This document shows positions 7,240 through 62,858 of a stretch of 64,000 nt of DNA, piece after piece. Within the stretch, counting starts at the first letter, position 1; each line of letters opens with the position of its first letter. The stretch spans positions 124,001 through 188,000 of IMG/VR virus record IMGVR_UViG_3300034101_004588; one strand, written 5' to 3'. The DNA is from a virus. Position numbers and translations under genes: made by a program. The notes beneath the pieces were generated by a model. That model worked only from the letters and a program-made list of their open reading frames with translations, was not told the DNA's origin and made no database searches.

Positions 7240-7267
7240 ATATTAGAACAAACAATTTTTAAATCAA
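7240..7267 (-). promoter_or_regulatory. Promoter of the 7233 gene, probably leaderless
   Basis: Minus strand TTGATT (7262-7267), 16 bp, TAATAT (7240-7245), 6 nt to the ATG at 7233. It overlaps the region upstream of the divergent NUDIX gene, so the two genes share a short intergenic control region. Confidence 0.5.
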
Positions 7268-7279
7268 TAAATATTTTGT

Positions 7280-10184: not shown

Positions 10185-10382
10185 TCAAATGTATTTGTTT
10201 TGATTTTTAATTTTATTAAGTTTTTGTTGAAACCTTCTTTTTCTTTCTCTTTTTTGTTTAGGAGTTTCAAAAGCTCTTTTAGAATAAAGTTGATCCATTA
10301 AACCATCATTAATAACTAATGTTTTTAATTTTTTTAAAGCAATATCTAAAAATTCTTTATTTTTTATTTTAATCGTGTACAT
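10185..10382 (-). CDS. rpsU: Phage-encoded small-subunit ribosomal protein bS21 homologue
   Basis: A 65-residue, strongly basic protein. The order matches bS21: a short strand (IKNKEF), the helix DIALKKLKTLVINDGL, an R-x-F-E-x-P-K-Q-K-R segment (RAFETPKQKR) and a basic C-terminal helix. bS21 sits near the anti-Shine-Dalgarno region of the 30S subunit. Phage-encoded bS21 is known from several large phages and is thought to replace the host protein to favour phage messages. That fits a phage whose own genes mostly lack Shine-Dalgarno sequences. Confidence 0.75.
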   Translation of the reverse strand: MYTIKIKNKEFLDIALKKLKTLVINDGLMDQLYSKRAFETPKQKRERKRRFQQKLNKIKNQNKYI

Positions 10383-19480: not shown

Positions 19481-19509
19481 AGTATATCGGAACCTTAAGG
19501 ACAAAGCAA
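19481..19509 (-). promoter_or_regulatory. Promoter of the 19473 gene, probably leaderless
   Basis: Minus strand TTGCTT (19504-19509), 17 bp, TATACT (19481-19486), 7 nt to the ATG. Shares TTCCGATATACTTA with 19247-19275. Confidence 0.55.
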
Positions 19510-28272: not shown

Positions 28273-28896
28273 TTATATATTTATACAAATATCATTCAGT
28301 TTTGACATAAGTGTTTCATCTTTTATATAATGAAAAGATACATAGTCTGCTATTTTATCTTCTGGTATGTTGTAATAAGAAGGAGGATGACATTTAAAAA
28401 TATCATTATGAGTAAATTTTATACCTTTTTCTCGGGTATTTAATCCAAAAGTAACATCACTATGAGTAGTTTTAAAATTTTTAAAATCTTTATATAAAGG
28501 TATTAAATTCTGATGCACTAAAAATCCTGCTCCTCCTTGTGGGTAATGTAAATCACCATAACATCCAAAACAATCCATACCATGAACAGATTGTGGATCA
28601 AAATTTTGTAGAATTTTTAATAAGAATTTTGTGTTAACAAAACAATCATCATCACAAAAATAAAACCACTCATATTCATTAATTAAATTCTTGTTAATAT
28701 ATTCAAAAATTCCTTTAATTTTTTCTTCCACGTCATCTACATCACATACTTTAATAATTTTGTTATTTTTATCTTCATATTCAGCATAAAAATGTATATC
28801 ACAATTTTTGCCCCAAGTATTTAAAATTGCTTGTTGTCTTTCCTTGCTATTAAGATATTTTTCAGAAGTTAATATTAAAATCAATAAAGGTTTCAT
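28273..28896 (-). CDS. Fringe/GT31-like glycosyltransferase
   Basis: A 207-residue protein. ERQQAILNTWG near residue 20, D-D-D in FYFCDDDCFVN (metal- and nucleotide-sugar-binding DxD-type motif) and GGAGFLVH match the beta-1,3-galactosyltransferase/Fringe family (GT31). Family members transfer a hexose from a UDP-sugar. In a phage it may glycosylate DNA bases, virion proteins or host surface glycans. The sugar is unknown. Confidence 0.65.
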   Translation of the reverse strand: MKPLLILILTSEKYLNSKERQQAILNTWGKNCDIHFYAEYEDKNNKIIKVCDVDDVEEKIKGIFEYINKNLINEYEWFYFCDDDCFVNTKFLLKILQNFDPQSVHGMDCFGCYGDLHYPQGGAGFLVHQNLIPLYKDFKNFKTTHSDVTFGLNTREKGIKFTHNDIFKCHPPSYYNIPEDKIADYVSFHYIKDETLMSKLNDICINI

Positions 28897-32013: not shown

Positions 32014-32054
32014 CAAAAATAAAAAAAGAATCTTTAATTGTATAAATATTAAAT

Positions 32055-37044: not shown

Positions 37045-37157
37045 TTTAGATTCGTGTTTTAAAGATCTTATTATTTTTAAACCAAAAAAATTTAAAAAAA
37101 TTTCCAAAAAATTCACAATTAATAATACCTTAGAAAAACTTAAAATCAAGAAAATAA

Positions 37158-37697: not shown

Positions 37698-37706
37698 TTT
37701 AAAATG

Positions 37707-38466: not shown

Positions 38467-38496
38467 ATTATTATTTATAGTAAAATAGAAAGGAAG

Positions 38497-40855: not shown

Positions 40856-40883
40856 ATGATATATTTTTTATAGGAAAAATCAA
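40856..40883 (-). promoter_or_regulatory. Promoter of the HTH-phosphoesterase gene, probably leaderless
   Basis: Minus strand TTGATT (40878-40883), spacer of 16 bp beginning TTTCC, TATCAT (40856-40861), 6 nt to ATG 40849. The spacing selects the ATG at 40849 over that at 40855. Confidence 0.5.
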
Positions 40884-42771: not shown

Positions 42772-42780
42772 TATTAATAT

Positions 42781-43164
42781 TTATGGACGTTGAGGTGGAT
42801 AATCTTTATGATATCGTTCTAAATATGTAGTTCTTTCTGATATTTGATCTAATTGTTTTTGTAAGCCAGATACTACTGTATTGTAACCCTTCAACTGTTC
42901 TGCATATACTAACTGGGTTTGCATTATATTTTCCAATTTGCTTTGAGTTAATTCAAATTGAGTTTGTAAAAAATTTTCTTGTTTGTCTAAATAGGTTTGA
43001 AATTTATCTTGTCTCAAATAAGTGGATTCCATCCACAGTGTATAATACCCAACAGCTAAAAAGGTTATAATAACAAAAATAGGTTTGATTACAACACTAA
43101 TAAAAGCTCGATGACGAGTTTCGAATTTATTAAATTTGGATATAAAATCTGATGATTCACTCAT
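42781..43164 (-). CDS. Membrane-anchored coiled-coil protein
   Basis: A 127-residue protein: cytoplasmic start, one transmembrane helix (about 25-47, PIFVIITFLAVGYYTLWMES) and a long Gln-rich coiled coil (KLENIMQTQLVYAEQLKGYN). Layout suits an inner-membrane spanin-like or holin-associated role; no direct evidence. Confidence 0.5.
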   Translation of the reverse strand: MSESSDFISKFNKFETRHRAFISVVIKPIFVIITFLAVGYYTLWMESTYLRQDKFQTYLDKQENFLQTQFELTQSKLENIMQTQLVYAEQLKGYNTVVSGLQKQLDQISERTTYLERYHKDYPPQRP

Positions 43165-52402: not shown

Positions 52403-52432
52403 ATCATATATTTATAGAAACCAGGTGGTATT

Positions 52433-52958: not shown

Positions 52959-52987
52959 ATGATAGATTAAATTGGTGGGAAATACAA
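52959..52987 (-). promoter_or_regulatory. TTCCC-type promoter of the 52951 gene, leaderless
   Basis: Minus strand TTGTAT (52982-52987) followed by TTCCC, 17-bp spacer, TATCAT (52959-52964), 7 nt to the ATG. Matches the 55-63 kb class. Confidence 0.65.
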
Positions 52988-54018: not shown

Positions 54019-54022
54019 AAAA

Positions 54023-54274
54023 TTATTCTTTAGATTCTGTATATTTTAGATGTCTTAATATATCTTCAAAGACCTCGACTACATTATTAAAATTACCCCA
54101 ATAACCTAATCCATCTTGATTCTCGGCCTCATCAATATATTCATTAAAAGCTTCCATGACCTTATTTTTAAAACGCCAGAGTTCTTCTTCTTGAAAATCT
54201 TGTAAGGCCTGTAGTTTTGGATTTACAATTTTATCCATTTCCGCTTCCAAGAGTATTTGATCTTTAGATCGCAT
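54023..54274 (-). CDS. Small protein with N-terminal ILLEA-LQALQDF module
   Basis: An 83-residue protein, MRSKDQILLEAEMDKIVNPK then LQALQDFQEEELWRFKNKVM. The module makes up nearly half of it. First gene of the 48415-54274 string; divergent from 54335. Confidence 0.5.
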   Translation of the reverse strand: MRSKDQILLEAEMDKIVNPKLQALQDFQEEELWRFKNKVMEAFNEYIDEAENQDGLGYWGNFNNVVEVFEDILRHLKYTESKE

Positions 54275-54334
54275 ATTATTCTATTTACCCAACTTTTAAA
54301 GAGAATTCTCTTTATTACTCTTTATAATAAGAGT

Positions 54335-54988
54335 ATGGCTTATATCAATACCGATATTCCTTTATTCTCTTGTCTGCTAGATACTAGCTTTCTTTATGAT
54401 AAAGACCCAAGAACCACCCAAGAATATCTTAAAGTAGAGGTCTTTGGATTTACTTCTCTTAATCGAAGATGCGGTCTCTTCTCGGTTATGTCAGAAATGG
54501 GTAGTGTTCATACTCGAGTACCTCTTCATTACCTTATAGCCGAGGACACGGATAATCCCTCTCATTACCCGCTCGACTGGTTGCAACTTTGGGATTCCTA
54601 TTCTCCTTATGTGCAATGTATAAGATATGAGTACCTCAAAAACCTCACTTGTAAGATCTGCCTGAAAGATAGGAACTATGAGTCGGCTCGCTATCTCATG
54701 ACCTTTGATTGGTGCTATGGACCGGAATTCACCACCGGACAAAGTGAAAATCCGGGAGGTCATAAACAAGGACATCTACTAAAGGGCGATCACGGACAAT
54801 ACTATATACAACCGGGTAATAGAATAATCTGGAGAGACGGAGGAGCCTGGATTGGTAAAGAATTACAAGGGCATGAAAAATGGAAAGTCTTTTCTAAAGA
54901 GTTCTCTTGTGAACAAACAGGTTCTCGATGGTTTGCCGGAGAAGAAGAATTACACTTCTACCAATTTGAAAAGAATAAAGACAGGTGA
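54335..54988 (+). CDS. Conserved phage hypothetical protein
   Basis: A 217-residue protein from ATG 54335 (MAYINTDIPLFSCLLDTSFL); longer starts are not needed, and a TATAAT (54323-54328) lies 6 nt before this ATG. Trp/Tyr/Gly-rich with C-x-x-C pairs (LTCKICLKDR). The TDIPLFxCLxxxxFLYD start is familiar from phage early proteins, function unknown. Confidence 0.55.
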   Translation: MAYINTDIPLFSCLLDTSFLYDKDPRTTQEYLKVEVFGFTSLNRRCGLFSVMSEMGSVHTRVPLHYLIAEDTDNPSHYPLDWLQLWDSYSPYVQCIRYEYLKNLTCKICLKDRNYESARYLMTFDWCYGPEFTTGQSENPGGHKQGHLLKGDHGQYYIQPGNRIIWRDGGAWIGKELQGHEKWKVFSKEFSCEQTGSRWFAGEEELHFYQFEKNKDR

Positions 54989-55198
54989 TATAAAGATAAA
55001 GGGGTACCTATATAAAGGGGTAGGTACCGGGATTGCCCCGAGACCCGGGTATCGATTATTCTCGTCTATTATTGTTTTTGAACTGCCGGGGTCCTAGGAT
55101 ACCGCCCGTTGTCGTATTAACTTGCTTTTCCCTAGAATCCGATTTATAATTCCGCGCCTAGGGTTTCTTGGTCAAGGGGTTCGAACCCAGGTGACCTT
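54989..55198. other. Noncoding boundary region with inverted repeats
   Basis: About 210 nt. GGTACCTA (55003-55010) pairs with TAGGTACC (55021-55028) just after the plus-strand gene, likely its terminator. GGGTTCGAACCC (55177-55188), flanked by GGTCA/TGACC, forms a hairpin after the minus-strand 55199 gene. Base composition becomes more GC-rich from here on. Confidence 0.45.
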
Positions 55199-55498
55199 CT
55201 ACAGCTCGTACCCTTCAGACTCTTTCTTAGACTGGTGTTGATCCACGTGCCTGGCTAGCCGGCGAAGCTCTTGGCGGCACATCTCCTTAGCTTCTTCATT
55301 AGCCGAGGACTCCAGAACCGTCATACAGATATTCACCGCCTCTTCCCAAGAAGGGGTTAGGTCAATGACTCGACGATTGGTGTTGGCAGGAAGAGCTTGG
55401 AAGGCTTCGGCCATCTCTTCATTAGCTTCGGACTCGGTGACATAGACTTCTTCACATTGCACTTGAGTGTTGAAGTCATCGGTGTAGTTCTTATTCAT
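55199..55498 (-). CDS. Hypothetical acidic protein
   Basis: A 99-residue acidic, helical protein (MNKNYTDDFNTQVQCEEVYV). No family recognised. Start chosen by its own promoter: the ATG at 55498 is 10 nt from the -10. No Shine-Dalgarno. Typical of the small single genes in this region. Confidence 0.55.
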   Translation of the reverse strand: MNKNYTDDFNTQVQCEEVYVTESEANEEMAEAFQALPANTNRRVIDLTPSWEEAVNICMTVLESSANEEAKEMCRQELRRLARHVDQHQSKKESEGYEL

Positions 55499-55508
55499 AA
55501 CAGTTATT

Positions 55509-55537
55509 AGTGTAGAGACTATTTGGGGGAAACACCA
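55509..55537 (-). promoter_or_regulatory. TTCCC-type leaderless promoter (55498 gene)
   Basis: Minus strand TGGTGT (55532-55537)-TTCCCCC, 17-bp spacer, TACACT (55509-55514), 10 nt to the ATG. Confidence 0.65.
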
Positions 55538-55646
55538 GACTTTCTTTTTATTCTCTCAAAGTAATTTTAACGATGAAAGTAATCCTGCCTTTGTATTATT
55601 TTATACCGTTGTATTAAATTGCGGACTGCTATGAGAGATAAAAGAA

Positions 55647-55678
55647 CCCTCCAGCTTCCTATTACGGAAGCTGGAGGG
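55647..55678 (-). terminator. Strong hairpin terminator after the 56088 gene
   Basis: A 13-bp perfect stem (CCCTCCAGCTTCC with its complement) and 6-nt loop, followed on the minus strand by GGGTTCTTTT. It lies 45 nt past the stop of 55723-56088. Confidence 0.75.
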
Positions 55679-55722
55679 GGTTTCGTTGACACGGGTTCCT
55701 CTACTCAGAGGACCGAGAGTGT

Positions 55723-56088
55723 TTACTTCTTCCGCTTCTTCTTAGCGGCTTTCTTGACCGGAGCCTCTTCAACCGCAACTGTCACCATCTCCTCTTCAAT
55801 CTTAGCCTCGACCGCTTCTTTGACCTTAGGGTCAGCGGCGATGACTTCGAACTTGGGCTTGGAGACTTTGGCCGAGGAGACTTTCTCTTCGGTGTACTCT
55901 ACGCCGATCCCGAGGAAGGATCCTTTGCCGTTGGAGGCGGTGATCCGACGAAGCGCTCCGAAGACGGGACGATACTCGGCGGTGATGTTGTATTCGCTAG
56001 CGAGAGTGTCGATAACGAACTTCGGGGTGACCGTTTCATTCTTCATCAGAATGTCGCGGATGGCTTTGCTCATTGGGTTCTTTTCCAT
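55723..56088 (-). CDS. Small winged-helix-like protein with basic tail
   Basis: A 121-residue protein: an N-terminal 70-residue domain (KAIRDILMKNETVTPKFVID, PVFGALRRITASNGKGSFLG) looks like a winged helix and parallels the 61400-61582 protein (LREILSSGDSFEVHDLLKRV, GKGSF). The tail is Ala/Glu-rich and ends KKAAKKKRKK. Probably DNA-binding. Confidence 0.55.
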   Translation of the reverse strand: MEKNPMSKAIRDILMKNETVTPKFVIDTLASEYNITAEYRPVFGALRRITASNGKGSFLGIGVEYTEEKVSSAKVSKPKFEVIAADPKVKEAVEAKIEEEMVTVAVEEAPVKKAAKKKRKK

Positions 56089-56180
56089 ATTTTTATTTTA
56101 TTGGTTGTTTCTCTTGAGAGGTGGTCTCTCTTGATTGTTTATATCTTAAAGGTTTTTCTCGGGACTGGCAACCGGGTTTT

Positions 56181-56372
56181 TTAAATTTCGAAAGCCTTGG
56201 CATACCCCGACACTCGCGGCGAGAAGCAACGATCTTCGTTGATGATGCCATTGAGGTCATGTCCGATAGTGGAGACTATCGCCGCGTACTTCTCCTTAGA
56301 GCTGTACGTGGGGTGGTTGTGAACAAACCTGACATAAGCCAGGAGGTCTTTGAGGAAGGTTTTATCTTTCAT
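56181..56372 (-). CDS. Hypothetical small protein
   Basis: A 63-residue protein from ATG 56372 (MKDKTFLKDLLAYVRFVHNH), selected because the promoter -10 ends 7 nt upstream; the longer frame has no support. Contains H-N-H-P-T-Y-S-S. Unknown function. Confidence 0.55.
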   Translation of the reverse strand: MKDKTFLKDLLAYVRFVHNHPTYSSKEKYAAIVSTIGHDLNGIINEDRCFSPRVSGYAKAFEI

Positions 56373-56379
56373 AGTCTTT

Positions 56380-56408
56380 ATTATGGAGGAAATAAGGGGG
56401 AAGAGCCA
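56380..56408 (-). promoter_or_regulatory. TTCCC-type leaderless promoter (56372 gene)
   Basis: Minus strand TGGCTC (56403-56408)-TTCCCCC, 17 bp, CATAAT (56380-56385), 7 nt to ATG. Confidence 0.6.
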
Positions 56409-56410
56409 CC

Positions 56411-56614
56411 TCAAATCTCCTTCAGATGTTTGGGTTTCTTGAGAGAGAAGTTCTTGGGTTTCTTCTTGAGGACATTGAGGTAGTCCAAAGTATCGTCAAT
56501 CAATTGATAGATAGCTTTTATCTCCTCGGCTTTGGCTTTGGGGTCTTCTAGCATGTTGGCTAGACACTGCAAAGCCTCTTGGACTCGTTGGATCTCTTTC
56601 TCGATGCGATTCAT
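56411..56614 (-). CDS. Hypothetical helical protein
   Basis: A 67-residue helical protein (MNRIEKEIQRVQEALQCLAN) with Lys-rich end. Its ATG directly follows the stop of the lipoprotein gene (TAAATG), so it is translated from that message. Confidence 0.5.
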   Translation of the reverse strand: MNRIEKEIQRVQEALQCLANMLEDPKAKAEEIKAIYQLIDDTLDYLNVLKKKPKNFSLKKPKHLKEI

Positions 56615-56758
56615 TTAAAAGGAATAAGGGTTACCTGTCGAAGGGGGATGACTGGGTAGTACGTAATAGGTGGATACTCTTTCGTAGTAGCCATTGACTA
56701 TCTTGACAAAGCAGCCTAAGACAAAGAGACTGAAGAGGAGTGCAAGAGAGTATTTCAT
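56615..56758 (-). CDS. Very small lipoprotein
   Basis: A 47-residue frame from ATG 56758 to TAA 56615. MKYSLALLFSLFVLGC is a lipoprotein signal (lipobox V-L-G-C, Cys16); mature part Tyr/Pro-rich. ATGA overlap with the upstream gene and direct contact with the downstream one place it in a three-gene operon (57030 to 56411). May sit in the host envelope early in infection. Confidence 0.6.
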   Translation of the reverse strand: MKYSLALLFSLFVLGCFVKIVNGYYERVSTYYVLPSHPPSTGNPYSF

Positions 56759-57030
56759 TGATGGAGAAAATCCCAGGCAGAATTAGGAATCTCTTCGCGC
56801 ACCGCGGTGTCCAGGCTATCCGCCAGGTCCCGAGCTTCTTTAACCCGATTCTGCTCCAGCAGATGCCCAATGCAAAAGAGGTCAGCGGCATCGGTATAGG
56901 AGATGAGGAGATTGGCTCGATACTCTTTAACATTTTCTTTCTCCCAGGCCGTCTGCCAGTACTCGAGATACTTTGTAGAAGCCTCTTTGACGATGTTAGC
57001 CGCGGAGATGTGGGTGAGTTTTATTTTCAT
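56755..57030 (-). CDS. Hypothetical protein
   Basis: A 91-residue helical protein from ATG 57030 (MKIKLTHISAANIVKEASTK). First gene of a three-gene string with the lipoprotein. Unknown function; promoter 8 nt upstream. Confidence 0.55.
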   Translation of the reverse strand: MKIKLTHISAANIVKEASTKYLEYWQTAWEKENVKEYRANLLISYTDAADLFCIGHLLEQNRVKEARDLADSLDTAVREEIPNSAWDFLHQ

Positions 57031-57038
57031 CAAACACT

Positions 57039-57067
57039 AGTGTAGGGGTTATTCGGGGGAATCTCAA
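57039..57067 (-). promoter_or_regulatory. TTCCC-type leaderless promoter (57030 gene)
   Basis: Minus strand TTGAGA (57062-57067)-TTCCCCCGAATAACCCC spacer (17 bp)-TACACT (57039-57044), 8 nt to ATG. Spacer identical to two other promoters. Confidence 0.75.
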
Positions 57068-57381
57068 GCCAATTCTCTAACCACTTTTAGGTAACTAGCT
57101 AGGATCCAGGTACCTCCTTGGATGGCAGGTCTCTTGTACTCTTGATAGTTAGTAACTTCTACCTCACACCAGACTCTCTTCTCTCCACTGCGAAGCTCTG
57201 TCTTAAGATGATCCGCCTTAGGTTCCACCGCACAATGCCAACCTGGACGATAGGCAAAGCCTTTGGTGGCATGACACTCGGCCGGCATCCATTGTCCGAA
57301 AGGTACTACTTGAGTGCGATTGATAAAGAGAGGACCAAGAGTTCCGTCTTTACGTTTGCGAAAGAGTTTGTAGGCTTTCAT
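57064..57381 (-). CDS. Hypothetical basic protein
   Basis: A 105-residue protein (MKAYKLFRKRKDGTLGPLFI) with the pattern P-L-F-I-N-R-T-Q-V-V-P-F-G-x-W and R-P-G-W-H-C, and W-x-E-V-E-V-T-N-Y-x-E-Y. I recall this in phage proteins ('AYKLFR..KDG...PLFI') without a known role. Follows 57385-57645 after 3 nt, same message. Confidence 0.55.
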   Translation of the reverse strand: MKAYKLFRKRKDGTLGPLFINRTQVVPFGQWMPAECHATKGFAYRPGWHCAVEPKADHLKTELRSGEKRVWCEVEVTNYQEYKRPAIQGGTWILASYLKVVRELA

Positions 57382-57384
57382 GGT

Positions 57385-57645
57385 TTAGGCGTCAAGTTTA
57401 AATGCGGTCATGATACGGTTGTACCAAATAGGGTTCTTGTCTTTGAGGATATCCAGGGGGGCTTTGCCATCGTGGTACTCCTCAAAGTATTCCTCTGGGG
57501 TGTGGTTGGCGATAAGCTCTTTGCGGAACTTAGCCATCGTGAACGGGCTGCCCGAGTACTTGAAACGAGCAACGAACTGGCGGTTGGGTCCGAAGAGCAG
57601 GTACTGCCCTTCCTTCTTGAGATTGTCTTTGGTGAACTTATTCAT
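57385..57645 (-). CDS. Hypothetical protein
   Basis: An 86-residue protein from ATG 57645 (MNKFTKDNLKKEGQYLLFGP); longer frames include the promoter. Contains RFKYSGSPFTMAKFRKELIA and a helical end. Unknown function. Confidence 0.6.
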   Translation of the reverse strand: MNKFTKDNLKKEGQYLLFGPNRQFVARFKYSGSPFTMAKFRKELIANHTPEEYFEEYHDGKAPLDILKDKNPIWYNRIMTAFKLDA

Positions 57646-57655
57646 AACAAATACT

Positions 57656-57684
57656 AGTGTAGGGGTTATTCGGGGGAAACTCAA
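57656..57684 (-). promoter_or_regulatory. TTCCC-type leaderless promoter (57645 gene)
   Basis: Minus strand TTGAGT (57679-57684), 17-bp spacer TTCCCCCGAATAACCCC, TACACT (57656-57661), 10 nt to ATG. Confidence 0.75.
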
Positions 57685-57687
57685 CCC

Positions 57688-57903
57688 TTATTTGATCCTC
57701 TTGACTTTGAGAGCTGTCGGCTCGATATCACGGTCTCCGAACTCGGATCCGAAAGCATAGAAGCTGCCATGATAACCGTTCCACTCTTGAATGAAATTGA
57801 AAAGCTGGGTTTGGAAGGCTTTCATGGAGGTGCTGTCCAGCTGTTCTCCTTTAAGAGTATTGAGGTTGAAGCTGATTTCGAATTTGAAGGTGTTCTTATT
57901 CAT
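57688..57903 (-). CDS. Hypothetical protein
   Basis: A 71-residue strand-rich protein from ATG 57903 (MNKNTFKFEISFNLNTLKGE) with a Gly/Tyr-rich turn. Its promoter and start region are nearly identical to those of 57385-57645, suggesting duplication of the control region. Confidence 0.6.
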   Translation of the reverse strand: MNKNTFKFEISFNLNTLKGEQLDSTSMKAFQTQLFNFIQEWNGYHGSFYAFGSEFGDRDIEPTALKVKRIK

Positions 57904-57913
57904 AACAAATACT

Positions 57914-57942
57914 AGTGTAGGGGTTATTCGGGGGAAACACAA
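57914..57942 (-). promoter_or_regulatory. TTCCC-type leaderless promoter (57903 gene)
   Basis: Minus strand TTGTGT (57937-57942), 17-bp spacer TTCCCCCGAATAACCCC, TACACT (57914-57919), 10 nt to ATG. Confidence 0.75.
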
Positions 57943-58184
57943 GTCAAAACATCGTCTTCGGAAAGGGCATTGTAATCCAACCAGCCAAAGAGTTCCTGCT
58001 TACGAGCTACGGAGATATAAGAATAGTCTTTTACTTTCTCTCCATAGAAGCCACAGATGAAGCCGGCATGATCTAAAGCATCTTGCAAAGAAGAATGGGT
58101 TCTTACTTTAAGATGGGTAATGAGGTTGTGAACCTCAAAGCCGCGATCGCTTTTGTAGATCTTGACTACTTGGGACTCTTTCAT
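57924..58184 (-). CDS. Hypothetical protein
   Basis: An 86-residue protein (MKESQVVKIYKSDRGFEVHN) with alternating strands and a helix SSLQDALDHAGFICGF. Unknown function. Its 3' end overlaps the next gene's promoter. Confidence 0.55.
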   Translation of the reverse strand: MKESQVVKIYKSDRGFEVHNLITHLKVRTHSSLQDALDHAGFICGFYGEKVKDYSYISVARKQELFGWLDYNALSEDDVLTCVSPE

Positions 58185-58191
58185 GATCCCT

Positions 58192-58220
58192 AGTGTATAT
58201 CAGATTAGGGGGTCAGGCCA
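58192..58220 (-). promoter_or_regulatory. Promoter of the 58184 gene, leaderless
   Basis: Minus strand TGGCCT (58215-58220), 17 bp with CCCCC, TACACT (58192-58197), 7 nt to ATG. Overlaps the end of 58213-58434. Confidence 0.55.
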
Positions 58221-58434
58221 GACTGAAAAAGTCACTAGAAACCTTTTTAACATTGTCTGTCTCTGGGTAAAACCAAACTGTGAAGGACATCGGTTGAGAT
58301 TCCTCTTCTTCGGTTTTCAGATAGACAGCACAAGACCAAACATCTCCATCAATGTTCCAGGCTTCTACTTCCAAGACCTCAGCTCCAAAGTTGTACGCTT
58401 CTAGAGCCACATTAACTTTCTCTTCTCTATTCAT
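58213..58434 (-). CDS. Hypothetical acidic protein
   Basis: A 73-residue protein (MNREEKVNVALEAYNFGAEV), with strands W-N-I-D-G-D-V-W-S-C-A and F-T-V-W-F-Y. 'E-x-W-N-I-D-G' is shared with the neighbour 58431 (S-R-W-N-I-D-G-V-I-F). ATGA-type overlap with it. Confidence 0.5.
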   Translation of the reverse strand: MNREEKVNVALEAYNFGAEVLEVEAWNIDGDVWSCAVYLKTEEEESQPMSFTVWFYPETDNVKKVSSDFFSLA

Positions 58435-58679
58435 ATCAGAACTCCATTCTCCTGGAGGTATTGCTGTCTTTCAACGGATGACAGATGCTTTTGTAATTTG
58501 ACATTGTCCTTAGAGCTTACATCTTTGAAGATGACCCCGTCTATATTCCATCGACTCTCATAGACCTCAAAGAGATGCAGCAGGAACTTCTGATGATGCC
58601 TGGCCAGGAAGTCATGGTCCTGTCGATTGATAAAGAAACTATCTACAGAAGAGACTACAGCACTCTGATAGGTCTTCAT
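58431..58679 (-). CDS. Hypothetical protein
   Basis: An 82-residue protein (MKTYQSAVVSSVDSFFINRQ), helical middle and a R-W-N-I-D-G-V strand. Coupled to both neighbours by 4-nt overlaps. Confidence 0.5.
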   Translation of the reverse strand: MKTYQSAVVSSVDSFFINRQDHDFLARHHQKFLLHLFEVYESRWNIDGVIFKDVSSKDNVKLQKHLSSVERQQYLQENGVLI

Positions 58680-58903
58680 AGAACAGAATCCTCTAGAATG
58701 TTTTCTTCATAGCATTCTTGGAACGACCCGTATTCTGAAAACATATGATAGAGTTCGTGGTTGATATCCGAGGTACCTACTTCTTCTGCTCCGGCATTAA
58801 CCAGACGACGAGCGGCTAGACGACGAAGAAAAGGTTTAATGAGGTCCTCCGTATTACGATAGGCCTGCATGGCCTCTTCAAAGGTGGGTTTAGTAGCTTC
58901 CAT
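58676..58903 (-). CDS. Hypothetical helical protein
   Basis: A 75-residue acidic helical protein from ATG 58903 (MEATKPTFEEAMQAYRNTED). The longer frame to 58936 lies wholly within the upstream gene and is not preferred. Unknown. Confidence 0.5.
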   Translation of the reverse strand: MEATKPTFEEAMQAYRNTEDLIKPFLRRLAARRLVNAGAEEVGTSDINHELYHMFSEYGSFQECYEENILEDSVL

Positions 58904-59057
58904 GATAGTGGTAACGATGAAGACGGTCTTGGGCAATCAAACGATCGATCCATCCACTTTGATTGAACCAGGTGATGTTATGAGTCAGGAGACTAGGTTT
59001 CGGCTTACGGTAACGCCGGCTGATAACTTCAAAGAGCCTATGGAGTTTGTTTTTCAT
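58890..59057 (-). CDS. Hypothetical small basic protein
   Basis: A 55-residue frame from ATG 59057 to TAA 58890: MKNKLHRLFEVISRRYRKPK, then THNITWFNQSGWIDRLIAQD. Basic and aromatic; DNA or RNA binding is possible. It is first in a four-gene string (59057 to 58213) and sits 8 nt from a promoter -10, which supports it. Confidence 0.6.
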   Translation of the reverse strand: MKNKLHRLFEVISRRYRKPKPSLLTHNITWFNQSGWIDRLIAQDRLHRYHYHGSY

Positions 59058-59065
59058 CGTCTGTA

Positions 59066-59094
59066 AGTGTAGATGGTATTAGGGGGAAGTTCAA
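59066..59094 (-). promoter_or_regulatory. TTCCC-type leaderless promoter (59057 gene)
   Basis: Minus strand TTGAAC (59089-59094)-TTCCCCC, 17-bp spacer, TACACT (59066-59071), 8 nt to ATG. Confidence 0.7.
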
Positions 59095-59420
59095 GCCTCG
59101 ATTTTCACATCAACGAAGATGTCCTCTTTGAATGACCAGAGAATATCTTTGAGGCGAAAGCCAGGAGAACATCCACAGCTGCAGCCACACTTCTGAGACC
59201 AGGAAGGTTTAACGGTCTTGATCTGATCTTCTGTGAACCCTAGTCGCCGAAGGATAGTCGGGATCTGTTTCTTGAATTCCAGATGAGGACGGCTACGGCG
59301 ATTGACTAGATTCTCCATCACAGACTCTCCGGTGAGGAAGAAGTACATATGAGGAGATGTCCGACGACGATCGTAACCGTTCATCGGTTGTTTGGTGATT
59401 CCTTCAATGGTTATTTTCAT
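59091..59420 (-). CDS. Hypothetical protein with Cys-rich GCSCGCS segment
   Basis: A 109-residue protein (MKITIEGITKQPMNGYDRRR). C-G-C-S-C-G-C-S-P-G-F near residues 79-89 could bind a metal; the G-R-L-G-F and W-S-x-K-C-G-C-S-C-G-C-S-P-G pattern appears in other phage proteins of unknown function. Confidence 0.55.
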   Translation of the reverse strand: MKITIEGITKQPMNGYDRRRTSPHMYFFLTGESVMENLVNRRSRPHLEFKKQIPTILRRLGFTEDQIKTVKPSWSQKCGCSCGCSPGFRLKDILWSFKEDIFVDVKIEA

Positions 59421-59428
59421 CGTTTATA

Positions 59429-59457
59429 AGTGTAGAGGAAATTCGGGGGAAACACAA
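59429..59457 (-). promoter_or_regulatory. TTCCC-type leaderless promoter (59420 gene)
   Basis: Minus strand TTGTGT (59452-59457)-TTCCCCC, 17 bp, TACACT (59429-59434), 8 nt to ATG. Confidence 0.75.
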
Positions 59458-59460
59458 GGA

Positions 59461-59497
59461 AAAAAAGAGGGGGTCCCAGCCGCACTAGGACCCCCTC
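59461..59497 (-). terminator. Rho-independent terminator after the 59880 gene
   Basis: GAGGGGGTCC pairs with GGACCCCCTC (10 bp, 11-nt loop) and on the minus strand is followed by seven T. It lies 15 nt past the stop of 59512-59880. Confidence 0.85.
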
Positions 59498-59511
59498 AAC
59501 CACACCCACAA

Positions 59512-59880
59512 TTACCAGGTAATGTCAACACCTAAGCGCCGCATCATCTTTTGCATACGCTTCAAGAAGGCTTCCTTGTCGTCTTCGGTGACCGAGACCG
59601 GCCGAGACCAGGTGGGGGCCATATCTTTGTAGATATAGGTCCTAGGATGAACGTTACGAATACACGTAACGTAGTTACGATTACCAGAGCCTTTACGATA
59701 CGACAGACAGACTCCTTTACGTTTAATGGTACGGTTCAAAGAACCAACCATGCGACGAACCTCAGCAGACTCGTTACCGAGGATTCGAATAGTATCACCT
59801 GGCTCCATGCTATGAAGAAGTTCGGCGAGTTGTGGATTGGCCGGCCTGCGACCACTGTTTTTGAGGTATGATTTATTCAT
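59512..59880 (-). CDS. Hypothetical basic protein
   Basis: A 122-residue protein (MNKSYLKNSGRRPANPQLAE). The middle (RRMVGSLNRTIKRKGVCLSY) is basic and helical, and the C-terminus (FLKRMQKMMRRLGVDITW) amphipathic. Possibly a small nucleic-acid-binding protein. Has its own promoter and terminator, so it forms a single transcription unit. Confidence 0.6.
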   Translation of the reverse strand: MNKSYLKNSGRRPANPQLAELLHSMEPGDTIRILGNESAEVRRMVGSLNRTIKRKGVCLSYRKGSGNRNYVTCIRNVHPRTYIYKDMAPTWSRPVSVTEDDKEAFLKRMQKMMRRLGVDITW

Positions 59881-59887
59881 CAGGATA

Positions 59888-59916
59888 AGGTTAAAGGATT
59901 TTATCGGGAATTGCCC
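59888..59916 (-). promoter_or_regulatory. TTCCC-type leaderless promoter (59880 gene)
   Basis: Minus strand GGGCAA (59911-59916)-TTCCC, 17 bp, TAACCT (59888-59893), 7 nt to ATG. Weak -35. Confidence 0.5.
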
Positions 59917-59919
59917 GCT

Positions 59920-60168
59920 TTATTTTAGAGGAAGTTCTGGGTGGTCAATAACAATCTTGTCAATCTTTTTATTGAGGTCTTGTAGTTTAGTAATCAAACT
60001 ACGCAGACCCTTTTTATTGACCGACACTATCTGAGAGGTGTTCTCATAAAAGAACTCCAGAGTAACGACTGCCTCTGAGGATATCGGGGTTGAGAAACCT
60101 TTGTATTTAACTTTCTTTTCCAAAGTAGCTTTGACTTTGGCACTGACGGCATTGAAACATTCTTTCAT
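59920..60168 (-). CDS. Hypothetical basic protein
   Basis: An 82-residue protein (MKECFNAVSAKVKATLEKKV), strand VTLEFFYENTSQIVSV and helix KGLRSLITKLQDLNKKIDKI. Unknown function. Confidence 0.55.
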   Translation of the reverse strand: MKECFNAVSAKVKATLEKKVKYKGFSTPISSEAVVTLEFFYENTSQIVSVNKKGLRSLITKLQDLNKKIDKIVIDHPELPLK

Positions 60169-60175
60169 AGTCTAT

Positions 60176-60204
60176 AGAATAAAAGGGTTTAGGGGGAAAG
60201 GCAA
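60176..60204 (-). promoter_or_regulatory. TTCCC-type leaderless promoter (60168 gene)
   Basis: Minus strand TTGCCT (60199-60204)-TTCCCCC, 17 bp, TATTCT (60176-60181), 7 nt to ATG. Confidence 0.7.
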
Positions 60205-60215
60205 CAACATTAAGA

Positions 60216-60290
60216 TGGCACCTAGGGTAGGATTCGAACCTACAACCGAGCGGTTAACAGCCGCTAGCTCTACCATTGAGCTACCTAGGT
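60216..60290 (-). tRNA. tRNA-Asn(GUU)
   Basis: Minus strand: acceptor ACCTAGG / CCTAGGT, anticodon stem AGCGG/CCGCT with loop CTGTTAA (GTT), T-loop TTCGAAT, encoded CCA. Confidence 0.9.
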
Positions 60291-60296
60291 GTGACT

Positions 60297-60368
60297 TGGA
60301 ACGATTGGGACTCGAACCCAAAACCAATACCTTAAAAGGGTACTGCTCTACCATTGAGCTACCGTTCC
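60297..60368 (-). tRNA. tRNA-Lys(UUU)
   Basis: Minus strand: acceptor GGAACGG / TCGTTCC, anticodon loop CTTTTAA (TTT), T-loop TTCGAGT. CCA not encoded. Confidence 0.9.
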
Positions 60369-60379
60369 GCAGCATAAAT

Positions 60380-60622
60380 CTATTTATAAGCGCCGACAAC
60401 TCCGTCAAGGAGGCTATCGAAGTCTCCGTAGGTCAACTCGACTCTCTCCTCTAAAGGATCCCCCGAAAGAGCCCCGTCTTGATACATCTGGTGTAGCTCC
60501 TTGAATTCTTCCCGAGAAACAATACCCTTAAGTTCATCAAGGGCATCATAGACAGCGCGCATGCGATCGTCGTACTTGTCGAGGACAATGTCATGCATGG
60601 TAGGTGTGGATTTGTTTTTCAT
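60380..60622 (-). CDS. Hypothetical acidic protein
   Basis: An 80-residue acidic helical protein from ATG 60622 (MKNKSTPTMHDIVLDKYDDR). Ends LTYGDFDSLLDGVVGAYK. Unknown function; first gene before the two tRNAs, which are probably on the same transcript. Confidence 0.6.
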   Translation of the reverse strand: MKNKSTPTMHDIVLDKYDDRMRAVYDALDELKGIVSREEFKELHQMYQDGALSGDPLEERVELTYGDFDSLLDGVVGAYK

Positions 60623-60630
60623 CACCCTTT

Positions 60631-60659
60631 ATCTTAAAGAGCCATTCCGGGAAAGACAA
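60631..60659 (-). promoter_or_regulatory. TTCCC-type leaderless promoter (60622 gene)
   Basis: Minus strand TTGTCT (60654-60659)-TTCCC, 17 bp, TAAGAT (60631-60636), 8 nt to ATG. May also drive the downstream tRNA-Lys and tRNA-Asn. Confidence 0.75.
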
Positions 60660-60721
60660 GAAGAAAATTGGGGTAACTTTAGCCTTGGCTTTCCCCCTTA
60701 AATGCCTTACAATGAATACAG

Positions 60722-60841
60722 AATAAAGGACGGTAGAGCCTCGAACCGATAAAGACAGGGCGAACAGGGGATCAAACCCCGAGGGTAGGGGACTGGAGGC
60801 TGCCCAAATTCCATTTACGCAAAAGCCTCTTCTCTCAGTAT
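60722..60841 (-). ncRNA. Predicted small noncoding RNA with own promoter
   Basis: No reading frame of note, yet a consensus promoter ends at 60847 and a terminator-like hairpin CGGT...ACCG (60731-60748) followed by TCCTTTATT lies about 110 nt downstream. Between them are a GAGGCT/AGCCTC hairpin and a T-arm-like GGGG-TTTGATC-CCC. GC-rich against its surroundings. Could be a regulatory RNA aimed at a host RNA or protein. Confidence 0.5.
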
Positions 60842-60846
60842 AACTT

Positions 60847-60875
60847 ATTATAGGGAAAATTCCCGGGGATGGCCA
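60847..60875 (-). promoter_or_regulatory. TTCCC-like promoter of the predicted small RNA
   Basis: Minus strand TGGCCA (60870-60875), 17 bp starting TCCCC, consensus TATAAT (60847-60852). No start codon at the usual distance, unlike the other members of the class. Confidence 0.65.
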
Positions 60876-60897
60876 GAACTTTTTTTAAAAATTTTTG

Positions 60898-60913
60898 CCG
60901 GGCTTTTCCCCGG
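60898..60913 (-). terminator. Hairpin, possible terminator
   Basis: CCGGG and CCCGG around a 6-nt loop; on the minus strand it is followed by CAAAAATTTTT. Just upstream of the small-RNA promoter and downstream of the 61072 gene. Confidence 0.45.
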
Positions 60914-61003
60914 AAACCCTTATAAAATGGGGTGATAGTTTTTTTATTCCGAGGAAATTAATAATAGGGTATCCCCCCTTGGTTTCCGTGGAATAAGAAA
61001 AAG

Positions 61004-61052
61004 AATACCTAGGTATTAATGGAAGGATTCCCGGGTTTAATACCTAGGTATT
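61004..61052. repeat. Two copies of a perfect 14-bp palindrome
   Basis: AATACCTAGGTATT occurs at 61004-61017 and 61039-61052, 35 bp start to start. Perfect dyads in a noncoding gap look like operator sites for a dimeric regulator; the 35-bp period (about 3.3 helical turns) is not exactly in phase. Confidence 0.6.
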
Positions 61053-61071
61053 GATTGGGAGGAAAGGATTA

Positions 61072-61398
61072 TCAGGTTTCCTCGGGATACTCGATTCCCG
61101 TGTCGATACCCAGGATTTCCTGCCAGTTAGTAGCAATGTAACGAAAGATCTCTTGAATGAAAGAAGAAGGATATTCATCAATCAACAAAGCAGAATCTTT
61201 GTCTTGTTCCAAATAATCGTTCTGGGTACCTTGTTCTAAAATGCTTTCAATGTAAGCACTTAGCTCCAAGGTGGTGACTTCTTTTTCATTATCCATAGAA
61301 TAATCATTAAGGAGAGTAGATGCCAAAGAATATACTCCTCGCCAAAATCCAGGATTGGTACGAAGAAGTTCATCTAGAGAAAGATTGAAATCACTCAT
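61072..61398 (-). CDS. Hypothetical acidic protein
   Basis: A 108-residue acidic helical protein from ATG 61398 (MSDFNLSLDELLRTNPGFWR); longer frame overlaps the upstream gene. Near-contact with 61400-61582 suggests one message. Unknown function. Confidence 0.55.
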   Translation of the reverse strand: MSDFNLSLDELLRTNPGFWRGVYSLASTLLNDYSMDNEKEVTTLELSAYIESILEQGTQNDYLEQDKDSALLIDEYPSSFIQEIFRYIATNWQEILGIDTGIEYPEET

Positions 61399-61399
61399 A

Positions 61400-61582
61400 T
61401 TAATCTTTTTTACGGAAGGATCCTTTACCACAAGAAACACCTACCGAACGACAAGTCCGATAGACCTGACGATAGGTATAAGACTGTTCTTCGGTAGAGA
61501 CTCTCTTGAGGAGGTCATGAACTTCAAAAGAGTCTCCACTAGAGAGAATCTCTCGCAACTTAGCAGATAATGTATTTTTCAT
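61400..61582 (-). CDS. Small winged-helix-like protein
   Basis: A 60-residue protein: LREILSSGDSFEVHDLLKRV, YRQVYRTCRSVGVSCGKGSF. Similar in order to the first 70 residues of 55723-56088, sharing the GKGSF end. Likely a DNA-binding regulator; it might use the palindromes at 61004-61052. Confidence 0.55.
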   Translation of the reverse strand: MKNTLSAKLREILSSGDSFEVHDLLKRVSTEEQSYTYRQVYRTCRSVGVSCGKGSFRKKD

Positions 61583-61594
61583 ATATCGATAAAA

Positions 61595-61623
61595 AGTTTA
61601 CCACGAATAAGGAGGTAAATCAA
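61595..61623 (-). promoter_or_regulatory. Promoter of the 61582 gene
   Basis: Minus strand TTGATT (61618-61623), 17 bp starting TACCTCC, TAAACT (61595-61600), 12 nt to ATG. Near-leaderless. Confidence 0.55.
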
Positions 61624-61698
61624 CAAAAATAAAAACGCGTTAATAGAAACCCCCGCGATAATATAACACACTGTTCTATTAAATTAAAACTCGCTATA

Positions 61699-61732
61699 GA
61701 AAAGGGGTAGCTCTTTCGAACTACCCCTTTTC
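61699..61732. terminator. Bidirectional hairpin terminator
   Basis: GAAAAGGGGTAG pairs with CTACCCCTTTTC (12 bp, 10-nt loop); U tracts arise on either strand. 40 nt past the stop of 61770-61982. Confidence 0.8.
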
Positions 61733-61769
61733 TTGTTTGGTGATCAGCTTCTTGACATTCCGATCCAAA

Positions 61770-61982
61770 TTAGCGGCGTTTACGGTTACGGGTAAAGCGA
61801 CCTTCTTCATCACGCATATTGTGATAACGAGGGCGCAAGCGAACCGTATTACCTTGGAGAGCCACGATCTCGTAACGGCTAGTATTGATCATACGAGCGA
61901 CACGAGACTTACGAGCTTCCAAAGAAGTCCGAGGATCCAATTTGATCCCGAGGTCTTCTTTAATGTTCTTAGTAATGGTCAT
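61770..61982 (-). CDS. Hypothetical very basic protein
   Basis: A 70-residue, Arg-rich protein (MTITKNIKEDLGIKLDPRTS ... ending NRKRR), with the strand YEIVALQGNTVRLRP. Likely binds nucleic acid. One of few genes here with a clear Shine-Dalgarno (AGAAAGGAG) upstream; a GTG at 61994 is an alternative start directly after it. Confidence 0.6.
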   Translation of the reverse strand: MTITKNIKEDLGIKLDPRTSLEARKSRVARMINTSRYEIVALQGNTVRLRPRYHNMRDEEGRFTRNRKRR

Positions 61983-62011
61983 TAGTGCATTCACTCCTTT
62001 CTAATAAAATA

Positions 62012-62039
62012 AGTATAGAACAGTTTAAGACTTAGGCAA
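62012..62039 (-). promoter_or_regulatory. Sigma70-like promoter with a leader and Shine-Dalgarno
   Basis: Minus strand TTGCCT (62034-62039), 16 bp, TATACT (62012-62017), about 29 nt to ATG 61982 with AGAAAGGAG between. Contrasts with the leaderless class: no TTCCC block, strong ribosome binding site. Confidence 0.6.
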
Positions 62040-62059
62040 CGAAGTATTTTTAATAAAGA

Positions 62060-62135
62060 TGGTACCTGAGGTGGGACTCGAACCCACACTTGACAGATTT
62101 TAAGTCTGTTGTCTCTGCCATTGGACTACTCAGGC
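62060..62135 (-). tRNA. tRNA-Leu(UAA) with a short variable loop
   Basis: Minus strand: acceptor GCCTGAG / CTCAGGT, anticodon stem ACAGA/TCTGT with loop CTTAAAA (TAA), variable loop only CAAGT, T-loop TTCGAGT, encoded CCA. Leu tRNAs normally have a long variable arm (as tRNA-Leu(UAG) at 36272), so the charging identity is uncertain. Confidence 0.8.
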
Positions 62136-62145
62136 CTAAAGCTCA

Positions 62146-62676
62146 TTATGCTGCCTTATGAAATCTTTTCAAGTCACAGACGCAATATTTAATCCACGGG
62201 CATCCATCACACCACTTTCCGTTATCGAGATAGATGTCGGGACGTTGACAAGCCACCGAAGTCAATGACTCTACCCCTTCTTTGTCTGTAGGAGTAATAA
62301 AAGGCAGCTTAGTGAATTCCATCTTCGGAAGATCTTTCTTAATCTTCTCGGCTCTCTCTTCTAGCTCTTCCTTGGTCATTACTGACAAAGGATTAACATA
62401 AGTCTTCTTCGGTTTAGGTTCTTTAGGATCTTTATGCAGATTGCGACAGGCTCGACATTCAAAGGTCTGTAGCAGCTCTTCTATGTTATTCTTATGCTTC
62501 TTAAGATAGTTCTTAAGATTAGGACCAAACATAGAAACGGTATTGTGTTTGCAGTGACTACAAGTAATCTTCTGCGCCGGCAGTTTCTTGTGTTCTTTAA
62601 AGAACTTGATCCAACCTGAGATATCTTCAAATTGATTGAATGATGCCTTTTTATTACCCTTAGTTTTCTTAGCCAT
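62146..62676 (-). CDS. Zinc-binding protein of unknown function
   Basis: A 176-residue protein. Two Cys pairs (TCSHCKHNTVSMFG near 39 and FECRACRNLHK near 75) form a likely zinc ribbon; near the C-terminus are C-D-G-C-P and C-V-C-D-L-K-R, another cluster. Lys-rich. Could bind nucleic acid or a host protein. A degenerate TTCCC-type promoter may lie around 62714-62742. Confidence 0.6.
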   Translation of the reverse strand: MAKKTKGNKKASFNQFEDISGWIKFFKEHKKLPAQKITCSHCKHNTVSMFGPNLKNYLKKHKNNIEELLQTFECRACRNLHKDPKEPKPKKTYVNPLSVMTKEELEERAEKIKKDLPKMEFTKLPFITPTDKEGVESLTSVACQRPDIYLDNGKWCDGCPWIKYCVCDLKRFHKAA

Positions 62677-62718
62677 AGATAGCGTTACTTTCTATTTGTT
62701 GGTGCTTTTGTATAGGAT

Positions 62719-62820
62719 CTAGTGCTTTGCCGGGAATGACACTCTTTTTTTATTAAGAGGTTTGACCACAATGCGAAGTCGGTTTTTGTTGATAATGAAG
62801 GTTAAAGAGGCTTTTTCCAT
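62719..62820 (-). CDS. Very small basic protein
   Basis: A 33-residue frame from ATG 62820 to TAG 62719: MEKASLTFIINKNRLRIVVK then PLNKKRVSFPAKH. The promoter -10 ends 9 nt upstream, which supports translation of this short frame. Confidence 0.5.
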   Translation of the reverse strand: MEKASLTFIINKNRLRIVVKPLNKKRVSFPAKH

Positions 62821-62829
62821 AAGACTAAT

Positions 62830-62858
62830 AATATAACATTTATTAGGGGGAAAGACAA
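62830..62858 (-). promoter_or_regulatory. TTCCC-type leaderless promoter (62820 small gene)
   Basis: Minus strand TTGTCT (62853-62858)-TTCCCCC, 17 bp, TATATT (62830-62835), 9 nt to ATG. One of the best matches to the class. Confidence 0.75.

What the first reader, a model, noticed from the sequence alone, without database searches (positions are those of the whole stretch)
55499..62858. A repeated promoter class that appears to make leaderless early messages
In the 55-63 kb region almost every small gene has, immediately upstream, a block reading TTGnnT-TTCCC(CC)-N10-12-TAnnnT with 17 bp between hexamers. The -10 ends only 7-12 nt from the ATG (for example 55509, 56380, 57039, 57656, 57914, 59066, 59429, 59888, 60176, 60631, 62830). 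With a usual -10 to start distance, transcription would begin at or within a few bases of the ATG. Matching this, these genes lack Shine-Dalgarno sequences. The spacer TTCCCCCGAATAACCCC is identical at three sites, while the TTCCC block next to the -35 is shared by nearly all, suggesting an extra contact by sigma or a phage factor.
Basis: partly seen in the sequence, partly recalled or inferred. Interest (0 to 1): 0.85.

Follow-up and report, generated by a model that had tools for sequence, protein, structure and literature searches.

The report
Promoters abutting start codons in T4-like phages
An uncultivated group of large T4-like viruses of bacteria places both its host-type promoters and its T4-type late promoters so close to the start codons that its messages should begin at or within about three bases of the AUG, which would explain why these genomes lack the usual ribosome-binding sequence.

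Summary
The motif is real. On the minus strand of 55-63 kb, about a dozen of 23 small genes have TTG-N3-TTCCC...-TAnnnT (17-bp spacer), with the -10 ending 7-10 nt before the ATG (12 once). Whole-genome scans confirm its concentration there and its position before start codons.

First, Shine-Dalgarno (SD) sequences are missing genome-wide, not only from these genes. Second, placement next to the ATG is not special to early genes. The phage is a deep-branching T4-like myovirus with a gp55 late sigma. Its other sigma70-like promoters peak at exactly 6 nt, and its T4-type late promoters (NATAARTA) at 5-6 nt, before the start codon: the distances that put +1 on the A of the AUG for each class. Four related near-complete genomes show both peaks with a sharp inner edge; T4 and S-PM2 show neither.

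Best explanation: genome-wide leaderless or nearly leaderless transcription, conserved across a large uncultivated clade. The TTCCC block belongs to a wider TCC element just after the -35, enriched in four of seven clade records; what binds it is unknown. All is sequence inference; no transcript ends exist.

The parts
55509..55537 (-). cluster promoter (degenerate -35, TTCCCCC, TACACT), d=10 to ATG of gene 55199-55498
56380..56408 (-). weak cluster promoter (TTCCCCC, CATAAT), d=7 to ATG of gene 56181-56372
   Evidence: 19.4 bits, not a training site
57039..57067 (-). cluster promoter TTGAGA-TTCCCCCGAATAACCCC-TACACT, d=8 to ATG of gene 56755-57030
57656..57684 (-). cluster promoter TTGAGT-TTCCCCCGAATAACCCC-TACACT, d=10 to ATG of gene 57385-57645
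57914..57942 (-). cluster promoter TTGTGT-TTCCCCCGAATAACCCC-TACACT, d=10 to ATG of gene 57688-57903
58192..58220 (-). variant cluster promoter (GACCCCCTAAT, TACACT), d=7 to ATG of gene 57924-58184
   Evidence: 20.5 bits, not a training site
59066..59094 (-). cluster promoter TTGAAC-TTCCCCCTAATACCATC-TACACT, d=8 to ATG of gene 58890-59057
59429..59457 (-). cluster promoter TTGTGT-TTCCCCCGAATTTCCTC-TACACT, d=8 to ATG of gene 59091-59420
59888..59916 (-). cluster promoter (degenerate -35, TTCCCG, TAACCT), d=7 to ATG of gene 59512-59880
60176..60204 (-). cluster promoter TTGCCT-TTCCCCCTAAACCCTTT-TATTCT, d=7 to ATG of gene 59920-60168
60631..60659 (-). cluster promoter TTGTCT-TTCCCGGAATGGCTCTT-TAAGAT, d=8 to ATG of gene 60380-60622
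61595..61623 (-). weak related promoter TTGATT-TACCTCCTTATTCGTGG-TAAACT, d=12 to ATG of gene 61400-61582
   Evidence: read from sequence
62830..62858 (-). cluster promoter TTGTCT-TTCCCCCTAATAAATGT-TATATT, d=9 to ATG of small ORF 62719-62820
52959..52987 (-). same class outside the cluster: TTGTAT-TTCCCACCAATTTAATC-TATCAT, d=7 to ATG of gene 52433-52951
19481..19509 (-). sigma70-like promoter TTGCTT-TGTCCTTAAGGTTCCGA-TATACT, d=7 to ATG of gene 19261-19473; nearly the same promoter occurs in relative G013
40856..40883 (-). sigma70-like promoter TTGATT-TTTCCTATAAAAAATA-TATCAT, d=6 to ATG 40849
52409..52416 (-). late-type promoter TATAAATA, d=6 to ATG of gene 52082-52402
42778..42785 (-). late-type promoter CATAAATA, d=6 to ATG 42771
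38472..38479 (-). late-type promoter TATAAATA, d=5 to ATG 38466
28278..28285 (-). late-type promoter TATAAATA, d=6 to ATG 28271
32041..32048 (+). late-type promoter TATAAATA, d=6 to ATG of gene 32055-32246
7266..7273 (+). late-type promoter AATAAATA, d=6 to ATG of gene 7280-7699
10185..10382 (-). bS21 ribosomal protein homologue (65 aa); possible, untested link to SD-independent translation

Best explanation
The 55-63 kb blocks are sigma70-type promoters of a gene-dense, probably early, accessory region of a large T4-like phage. Transcription from them should start on the A of the ATG or 1-3 nt before it, so these mRNAs are leaderless or nearly so and are translated without Shine-Dalgarno (SD) pairing. 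The same design is used by the phage's other sigma70-like promoters and by its gp55-type late promoters, and is conserved across its uncultivated clade: transcription start and translation start are fused genome-wide. Operon-internal genes are closely packed (gap 10 nt or less) and probably rely on translational coupling. Shown: the motifs, their positions, the two sharp distance peaks, absence of SD, the gp55 homologue, conservation in relatives and absence of the pattern in T4 and S-PM2. Inferred: that the motifs are active promoters, that +1 lies at its usual distance, that the AUG-first mRNAs are translated, and the early timing. The TTCCC block is one form of a TCC element at spacer positions 3-5 that probably adds a contact for RNA polymerase or a regulator (inferred, about 45% for a positive contact).
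For: Distance histograms: in the rest of this genome TTG-N16-18-TANNNT gives 25 sites at d=5-10 against 3.4 per 6-nt bin further upstream, mode d=6; ATAARTA gives 30 against 1.9, mode 5-6. Five clade genomes pooled (1331 genes): sigma70-like 17-bp sites 2 at d=5, 40 at d=6, 16 at d=7; late motif 6 at d=4, 32 at d=5, 39 at d=6, 26 at d=7. Each inner edge matches the distance at which +1 would fall on the A of AUG (sigma70 -10 at -12 to -7; T4 late TATAAATA at -13 to -6; established knowledge). All five genomes individually show both peaks and near-background SD (5-10% vs 4-5% shuffled); T4 and S-PM2, called with the same script, have 0 at d=5-8 in both classes, late motifs at 15-40 nt and SD at 47.5% and 28.8%. 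Genes preceded by a gap of 20 nt or more have such a promoter in 29-38% of cases, tightly coupled genes in 3-10%, T4 and S-PM2 in 0%. Repeated promoter families with d=6 or 7 occur in relatives: TTGACA-CCTCCTCCTAAAGCATA-TAGAAT-AAGATT-ATG in G015 and G020, TTGACN-TTTCCTCAAACAAYCTC-TAATAT in G009. gp55 homologue in this genome (3e-27) and 15 of 16 records. No downstream in-frame start with SD in 13 of 13 genes checked, and only 5 of 239 in the clade. Precedent that TANNNT 6-7 bp before an ORF makes leaderless mRNA: PMC12340547 and PMC3160421.
Against: No 5'-end, RNA-seq or protein data. Host unknown, so its sigma factor and its ability to translate leaderless mRNA are unverified. The cluster's own sites (d=7-10, once 12) lie outside the d=6 mode, so up to 3 nt of leader is likely, more at d=12. 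Strict motif definitions find a start-adjacent promoter at only about a third of genes preceded by a gap; the rest are unexplained. Relatedness among the five genomes makes the pooled counts partly non-independent.
Confidence: 0.82

Rival explanations
1. The promoters are ordinary sigma70 promoters and the TTCCC/TCC block is an operator: a phage or host regulator binds next to the -35 and represses or activates the whole accessory regulon. Leaders are short, but the block has nothing to do with leaderlessness.
For: Block almost invariant while the rest of the spacer varies. Restricted largely to the accessory cluster; different clade members have different block sequences, absent in G013 and G014, as expected for a regulator-operator pair that drifts. 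T4 MotA and AsiA domains not detected (the AsiA control did not ring).
Against: Always at the same phase to the -35, never found alone, and TCC recurs at the same spacer positions in different genomes (p = 4e-25 pooled), which also fits a polymerase contact. No candidate regulator identified.
Confidence: 0.4
2. The motifs are promoters, but the true mRNAs are leadered and SD-independent as in Bacteroidota; the closeness to ATG is compaction of intergenic space.
For: SD is absent genome-wide and upstream regions are A-rich; freshwater phages encoding bS21 are predicted to infect Bacteroidota (PMC9723584), and this phage encodes a bS21 homologue.
Against: Compaction would not produce two different inner edges exactly at the +1 distance of each promoter class. 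RM378, an SD-less T4-like phage of Rhodothermus, shows no peak. The -10 and -35 boxes look like TTGACA/TATAAT, not the Bacteroidota TAnnTTTG box.
Confidence: 0.1
3. The TTCCC cassettes are simply copies of one promoter spread by gene duplication, so conservation of spacer and block reflects ancestry, not function.
For: 57656 and 57914 are identical through ATGAATAAG; identical copies also abound in G015.
Against: Downstream genes are unrelated apart from two weak pairs; outside the block the spacers differ at most sites; TCC at the same place in divergent genomes.
Confidence: 0.25
4. The ATGs are misannotated and translation starts downstream with an SD.
For: Start sites of small orphan genes are uncertain in principle.
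Against: 0 of 13 genes checked and 5 of 239 clade genes have a downstream in-frame start with SD within 60 nt. The fixed promoter-ATG distance recurs in hundreds of genes.
Confidence: 0.03

Closest known systems
Leaderless genes with -10 (TANNNT) next to the ORF in Deinococcus-Thermus and Actinobacteria (PMC12340547, PMC3160421)
   Same: TANNNT 6-7 bp before the start codon; TACACT is the commonest form in D. radiodurans and the form used in this cluster; no RBS needed.
   Different: Those are cellular, mostly high-GC genomes in which SD-led genes coexist; here a 31% GC phage clade with almost no SD and a second, gp55-type promoter class with the same placement.
Thermus phages P23-45 and phiYS40 (leaderless middle and late transcripts; own knowledge)
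   Same: Promoter abuts the ATG; in P23-45 a TATTC-like box is visible a few nt before many starts.
   Different: P23-45 retains SD at about half of its genes (49% vs 18% shuffled), has no gp55-type late motif in the stretch tested and infects a leaderless-rich host; not T4-like.
T4 late promoters (TATAAATA, gp55/gp33/gp45) and Kyanoviridae such as S-PM2
   Same: NATAARTA motif and a gp55 homologue.
   Different: T4 and S-PM2 late motifs lie about 15-40 nt upstream with SD sequences between; here 5-7 nt and no SD.
T4 middle promoters (MotA box at -30)
   Same: A conserved element near -29 to -25 next to a sigma70 -10.
   Different: Here the -35 TTG is kept, the sequence is TTCCC/TCC rather than the MotA box, and no MotA C-terminal domain was found.
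SD-poor huge phages and bS21 phages (PMC7162821, PMC9723584)
   Same: Large phage, SD-poor, encodes a bS21 homologue.
   Different: The word 'leaderless' occurs in neither paper; those bS21 phages are predicted to infect Bacteroidota and carry bS21 beside the terminase, unlike here.

Membership tests
Leaderless-gene promoter class (TANNNT adjacent to ORF) | -10 hexamer ends about 6-7 nt before the start codon, far above background | tested here: met
   Mode d=6 in this genome and four relatives; the 55-63 kb cluster itself d=7-10
Leaderless-gene promoter class (TANNNT adjacent to ORF) | No SD before the start codon | tested here: met
   SD near shuffled level
Leaderless-gene promoter class (TANNNT adjacent to ORF) | mRNA 5' end mapped at the AUG | not testable with these tools
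   Needs dRNA-seq or Cappable-seq
T4-type late promoters | TATAAATA-like motif enriched before genes | tested here: met
   NATAARTAT among the most enriched 8-mers upstream of genes
T4-type late promoters | gp55 late sigma encoded | tested here: met
   phrog_234 E=3e-27; 15 of 16 clade records
T4-type late promoters | Leadered mRNA with SD downstream of the promoter | tested here: not met
   Motif 5-7 nt from ATG; no SD
T4-like myovirus (Straboviridae/Kyanoviridae relatives) | gp17, gp18, gp41, gp43, gp46, UvsX, UvsW homologues | tested here: met
   only 30-36% identity to named phages
T4 middle (MotA/AsiA) promoters | MotA encoded | tested here: not met
   PF09158 not found in 11 records; AsiA search inconclusive because its control did not ring
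Bacteroidota sigma-ABfr promoters | -7 box TAnnTTTG | tested here: not met
   Boxes are TAnnnT followed by non-TTTG sequence; -35 TTGAC/TTG with 16-18 bp spacing (read; no separate scan)
Actinophage | whiB gene as a host marker (common, not universal) | tested here: not met
   PF02467 in 0 of 17 records

The most novel reading that the evidence does not exclude
A whole clade of T4-like phages has rebuilt its expression programme around leaderless mRNA in every temporal class, fusing transcription and translation start sites. A clade-specific early promoter element (TCC after the -35) is read by a dedicated phage factor or modified sigma, and in some members a phage bS21 retunes host ribosomes for AUG-first messages.
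Probability: 0.2. Interest if true: 0.85.

Novelty: new variant of a known kind. Interest (0 to 1): 0.66.

Why it matters
SD-poor large phages from metagenomes have been noted without an established mechanism for how they start translation (PMC7162821 links it to phage S1-like proteins). If transcription starts at the AUG in both promoter classes, that is one answer: leader-free messages, with coupling inside operons. It gives a directly testable prediction for a large uncultivated clade (at least 127 terminase relatives in one collection), a rule for correcting start codons and predicting promoters in such genomes, and a hint that the host favours or tolerates leaderless initiation. I know of no T4-like phage group described this way; the literature searches here found none, but the library is partial.

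Tried and rejected
Early-only leaderless class: rejected, late and other sigma70-like promoters share the placement. Lack of SD as a special trait of the cluster: rejected, genome-wide. Misannotated starts: rejected. Actinobacterial host: suggested by one shared protein (59091-59420, 44% to Actinomycetia phage DSL-LC01) but that phage is leadered with SD and whiB is absent; left open. Bacteroidota host: suggested by SD lack and bS21, contradicted by promoter boxes; left open. Host by MAG contigs: terminase profile found nothing useful. Exact-pattern scan of viral contigs gave 11 scattered single matches, so the TTCCCCC form itself is not widespread. TTCCC extension in G013 and G014: absent. 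MotA: not found; AsiA search uninformative. Rfam in 54-64 kb: only tRNAs credible. Papers on leaderless plus TATAAATA phages, or leaderless plus jumbo phage start-site mapping: none in the library. Structure prediction was not needed.
Full report
What was examined. The window is bases 124001-188000 of a 210,956-bp IMG/VR record. I read all of the record except about 2 kb of uncertain gene calls, called genes with a simple hexamer model, and compared with relatives and with named phages.

The observation. In 55-63 kb the genes lie on the minus strand. The identical spacer at three sites is confirmed; no other site matches with fewer than 3 mismatches and chance expectation is 0.08. The loose pattern occurs 14 times on the minus strand and never on the plus strand of the whole record; reversed controls give 1 and 2. 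A PWM scan of the whole record puts 18 of its 19 best distinct hits within 52-61 kb and 62.8 kb of the window, 13 of them 7-10 nt before an ATG. Six good hits have no ATG behind them and lie in non-coding stretches; one of them (56143-56172) is 55 nt before the ATG of 55723-56088 and others may drive small RNAs.

The phage. Terminase, tail sheath, DNA polymerase, gp46, gp41, UvsX and UvsW homologues make it T4-like, at only 30-36% identity to named relatives. A gp55 late sigma homologue lies beside gp47. A terminase profile finds at least 127 related contigs in IMG/VR, several of 160-226 kb.

SD sequences. The 278 genes outside the cluster show SD-like words barely above shuffled sequence. Missing SD is therefore a trait of the genome.

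Start-codon-proximal promoters everywhere. The most enriched 8-mers before genes are NATAARTAT, the T4 late-promoter type. ATAARTA peaks 5-6 nt before start codons; sigma70-like pairs outside the cluster peak at 6 nt. Pooling five clade genomes, the sigma70-like count jumps from 2 at d=5 to 40 at d=6, and the late motif from 6 at d=4 to 32 at d=5. For sigma70 the -10 spans -12 to -7 and for T4 late promoters TATAAATA spans -13 to -6 (established knowledge), so these edges are where +1 would coincide with the A of AUG. Two promoter classes with different geometry each stopping at their own +1 distance is hard to explain other than by leaderless initiation. The same script on T4 and S-PM2 gives zero at d=5-8, late motifs at 15-40 nt and abundant SD. 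RM378, which lacks SD, shows no such peak, so lack of SD alone does not produce it; P23-45, known from my own knowledge to be leaderless in part, shows a promoter-like TATTC box against many starts. Start-adjacent promoters are found at 29-38% of genes preceded by a gap of at least 20 nt and at 3-10% of tightly packed genes.

The extra block. Relatives have their own repeated early-type promoter families: TTGACN-TTTCCTCAAACAAYCTC-TAATAT in G009, TTGACA-CCTCCTCCTAAAGCATA-TAGAAT in G015 and G020, and TTGAAG-TGTCCTAAAGA-N6-TAGACT or TAGTAT in G015 and G016; nearly the same promoter occurs at own 19481-19509 and in G013. TCC at the start of the spacer occurs in 41 of 133 ATG-adjacent sites against 42 of 1480 other TTG-N17-TANNNT sites (p = 4e-25), significant separately in the own record, G015, G016 and G009 but absent in G013 and G014. 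Duplicated cassettes inflate these counts. I read the block as a probable regulatory or polymerase contact, undecided between factor, sigma and operator.

How it probably works. Shown: positions, peaks, absence of SD, gp55, conservation. Inferred: host polymerase with sigma70 starts the accessory (early) and other genes at or just before the AUG; the gp55-type sigma starts late genes likewise; ribosomes engage the 5'-terminal AUG; later genes in an operon are reached by coupling. For the cluster, purine +1 options give leaders of 0-3 nt. A bS21 homologue (window 10185-10382) exists here and in two relatives and could bear on SD-independent initiation, but 13 of 16 records lack a detectable one, so it is not required.

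Known versus new. Leaderless genes with an ORF-adjacent -10 are known in Deinococcus-Thermus and Actinobacteria, and individual leaderless phage messages are known. SD-poor huge phages were noted before, without the word leaderless. What appears new is the use of the design in both promoter classes through a whole T4-like clade. I rate it a new variant of a known kind.

Limits. No transcript data, host unknown, gene calls are mine, clade genomes are related, and the literature library is partial.

Noticed in passing
window 10185-10382 (-): bS21 ribosomal protein homologue (PF01165, 3.5e-9), also in relatives G013 and G014.
   Followed up: partly
window 54000-62500: GC jumps from about 30% to 42-46% across the accessory cluster, and codon-based coding scores trained on the rest of the genome are poor there; suggests different origin or mutational history.
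   Followed up: no
window 60640-61070: Non-coding stretch with two convergent promoter-like hits (60684+, 60876-), a third at 60899+, and a strong inverted repeat (AATACCTAGGTATT arms); candidate small RNAs, no Rfam match.
   Followed up: partly
window 55121-55300 (+): A promoter-like TTCCC hit on the plus strand followed by GGTTCGAACCC (tRNA T-arm-like), reading towards the antisense of gene 55199-55498; ARAGORN and Rfam call no tRNA.
   Followed up: partly
window 55723-56088 and 61400-61582 (-): Two cluster proteins are paralogues (E=1e-6); the first has a promoter-like hit 55 nt upstream rather than abutting it.
   Followed up: no
window 59091-59420 (-): Protein with 44% identity over 75 aa to a small protein of the freshwater Actinomycetia phage DSL-LC01 (L074:24942-25151).
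   Followed up: partly
L074 (OQ999401): DSL-LC01 has its own repeated promoter GTTATAATNGAATC about 30-40 nt upstream with ACGAAAGGACA SD before dozens of small genes; a leadered counterpart.
   Followed up: no
window 34964-37777, 60216-60368, 62060-62135 and elsewhere: 19 tRNA genes in the window, none in the other 147 kb of the record.
   Followed up: no
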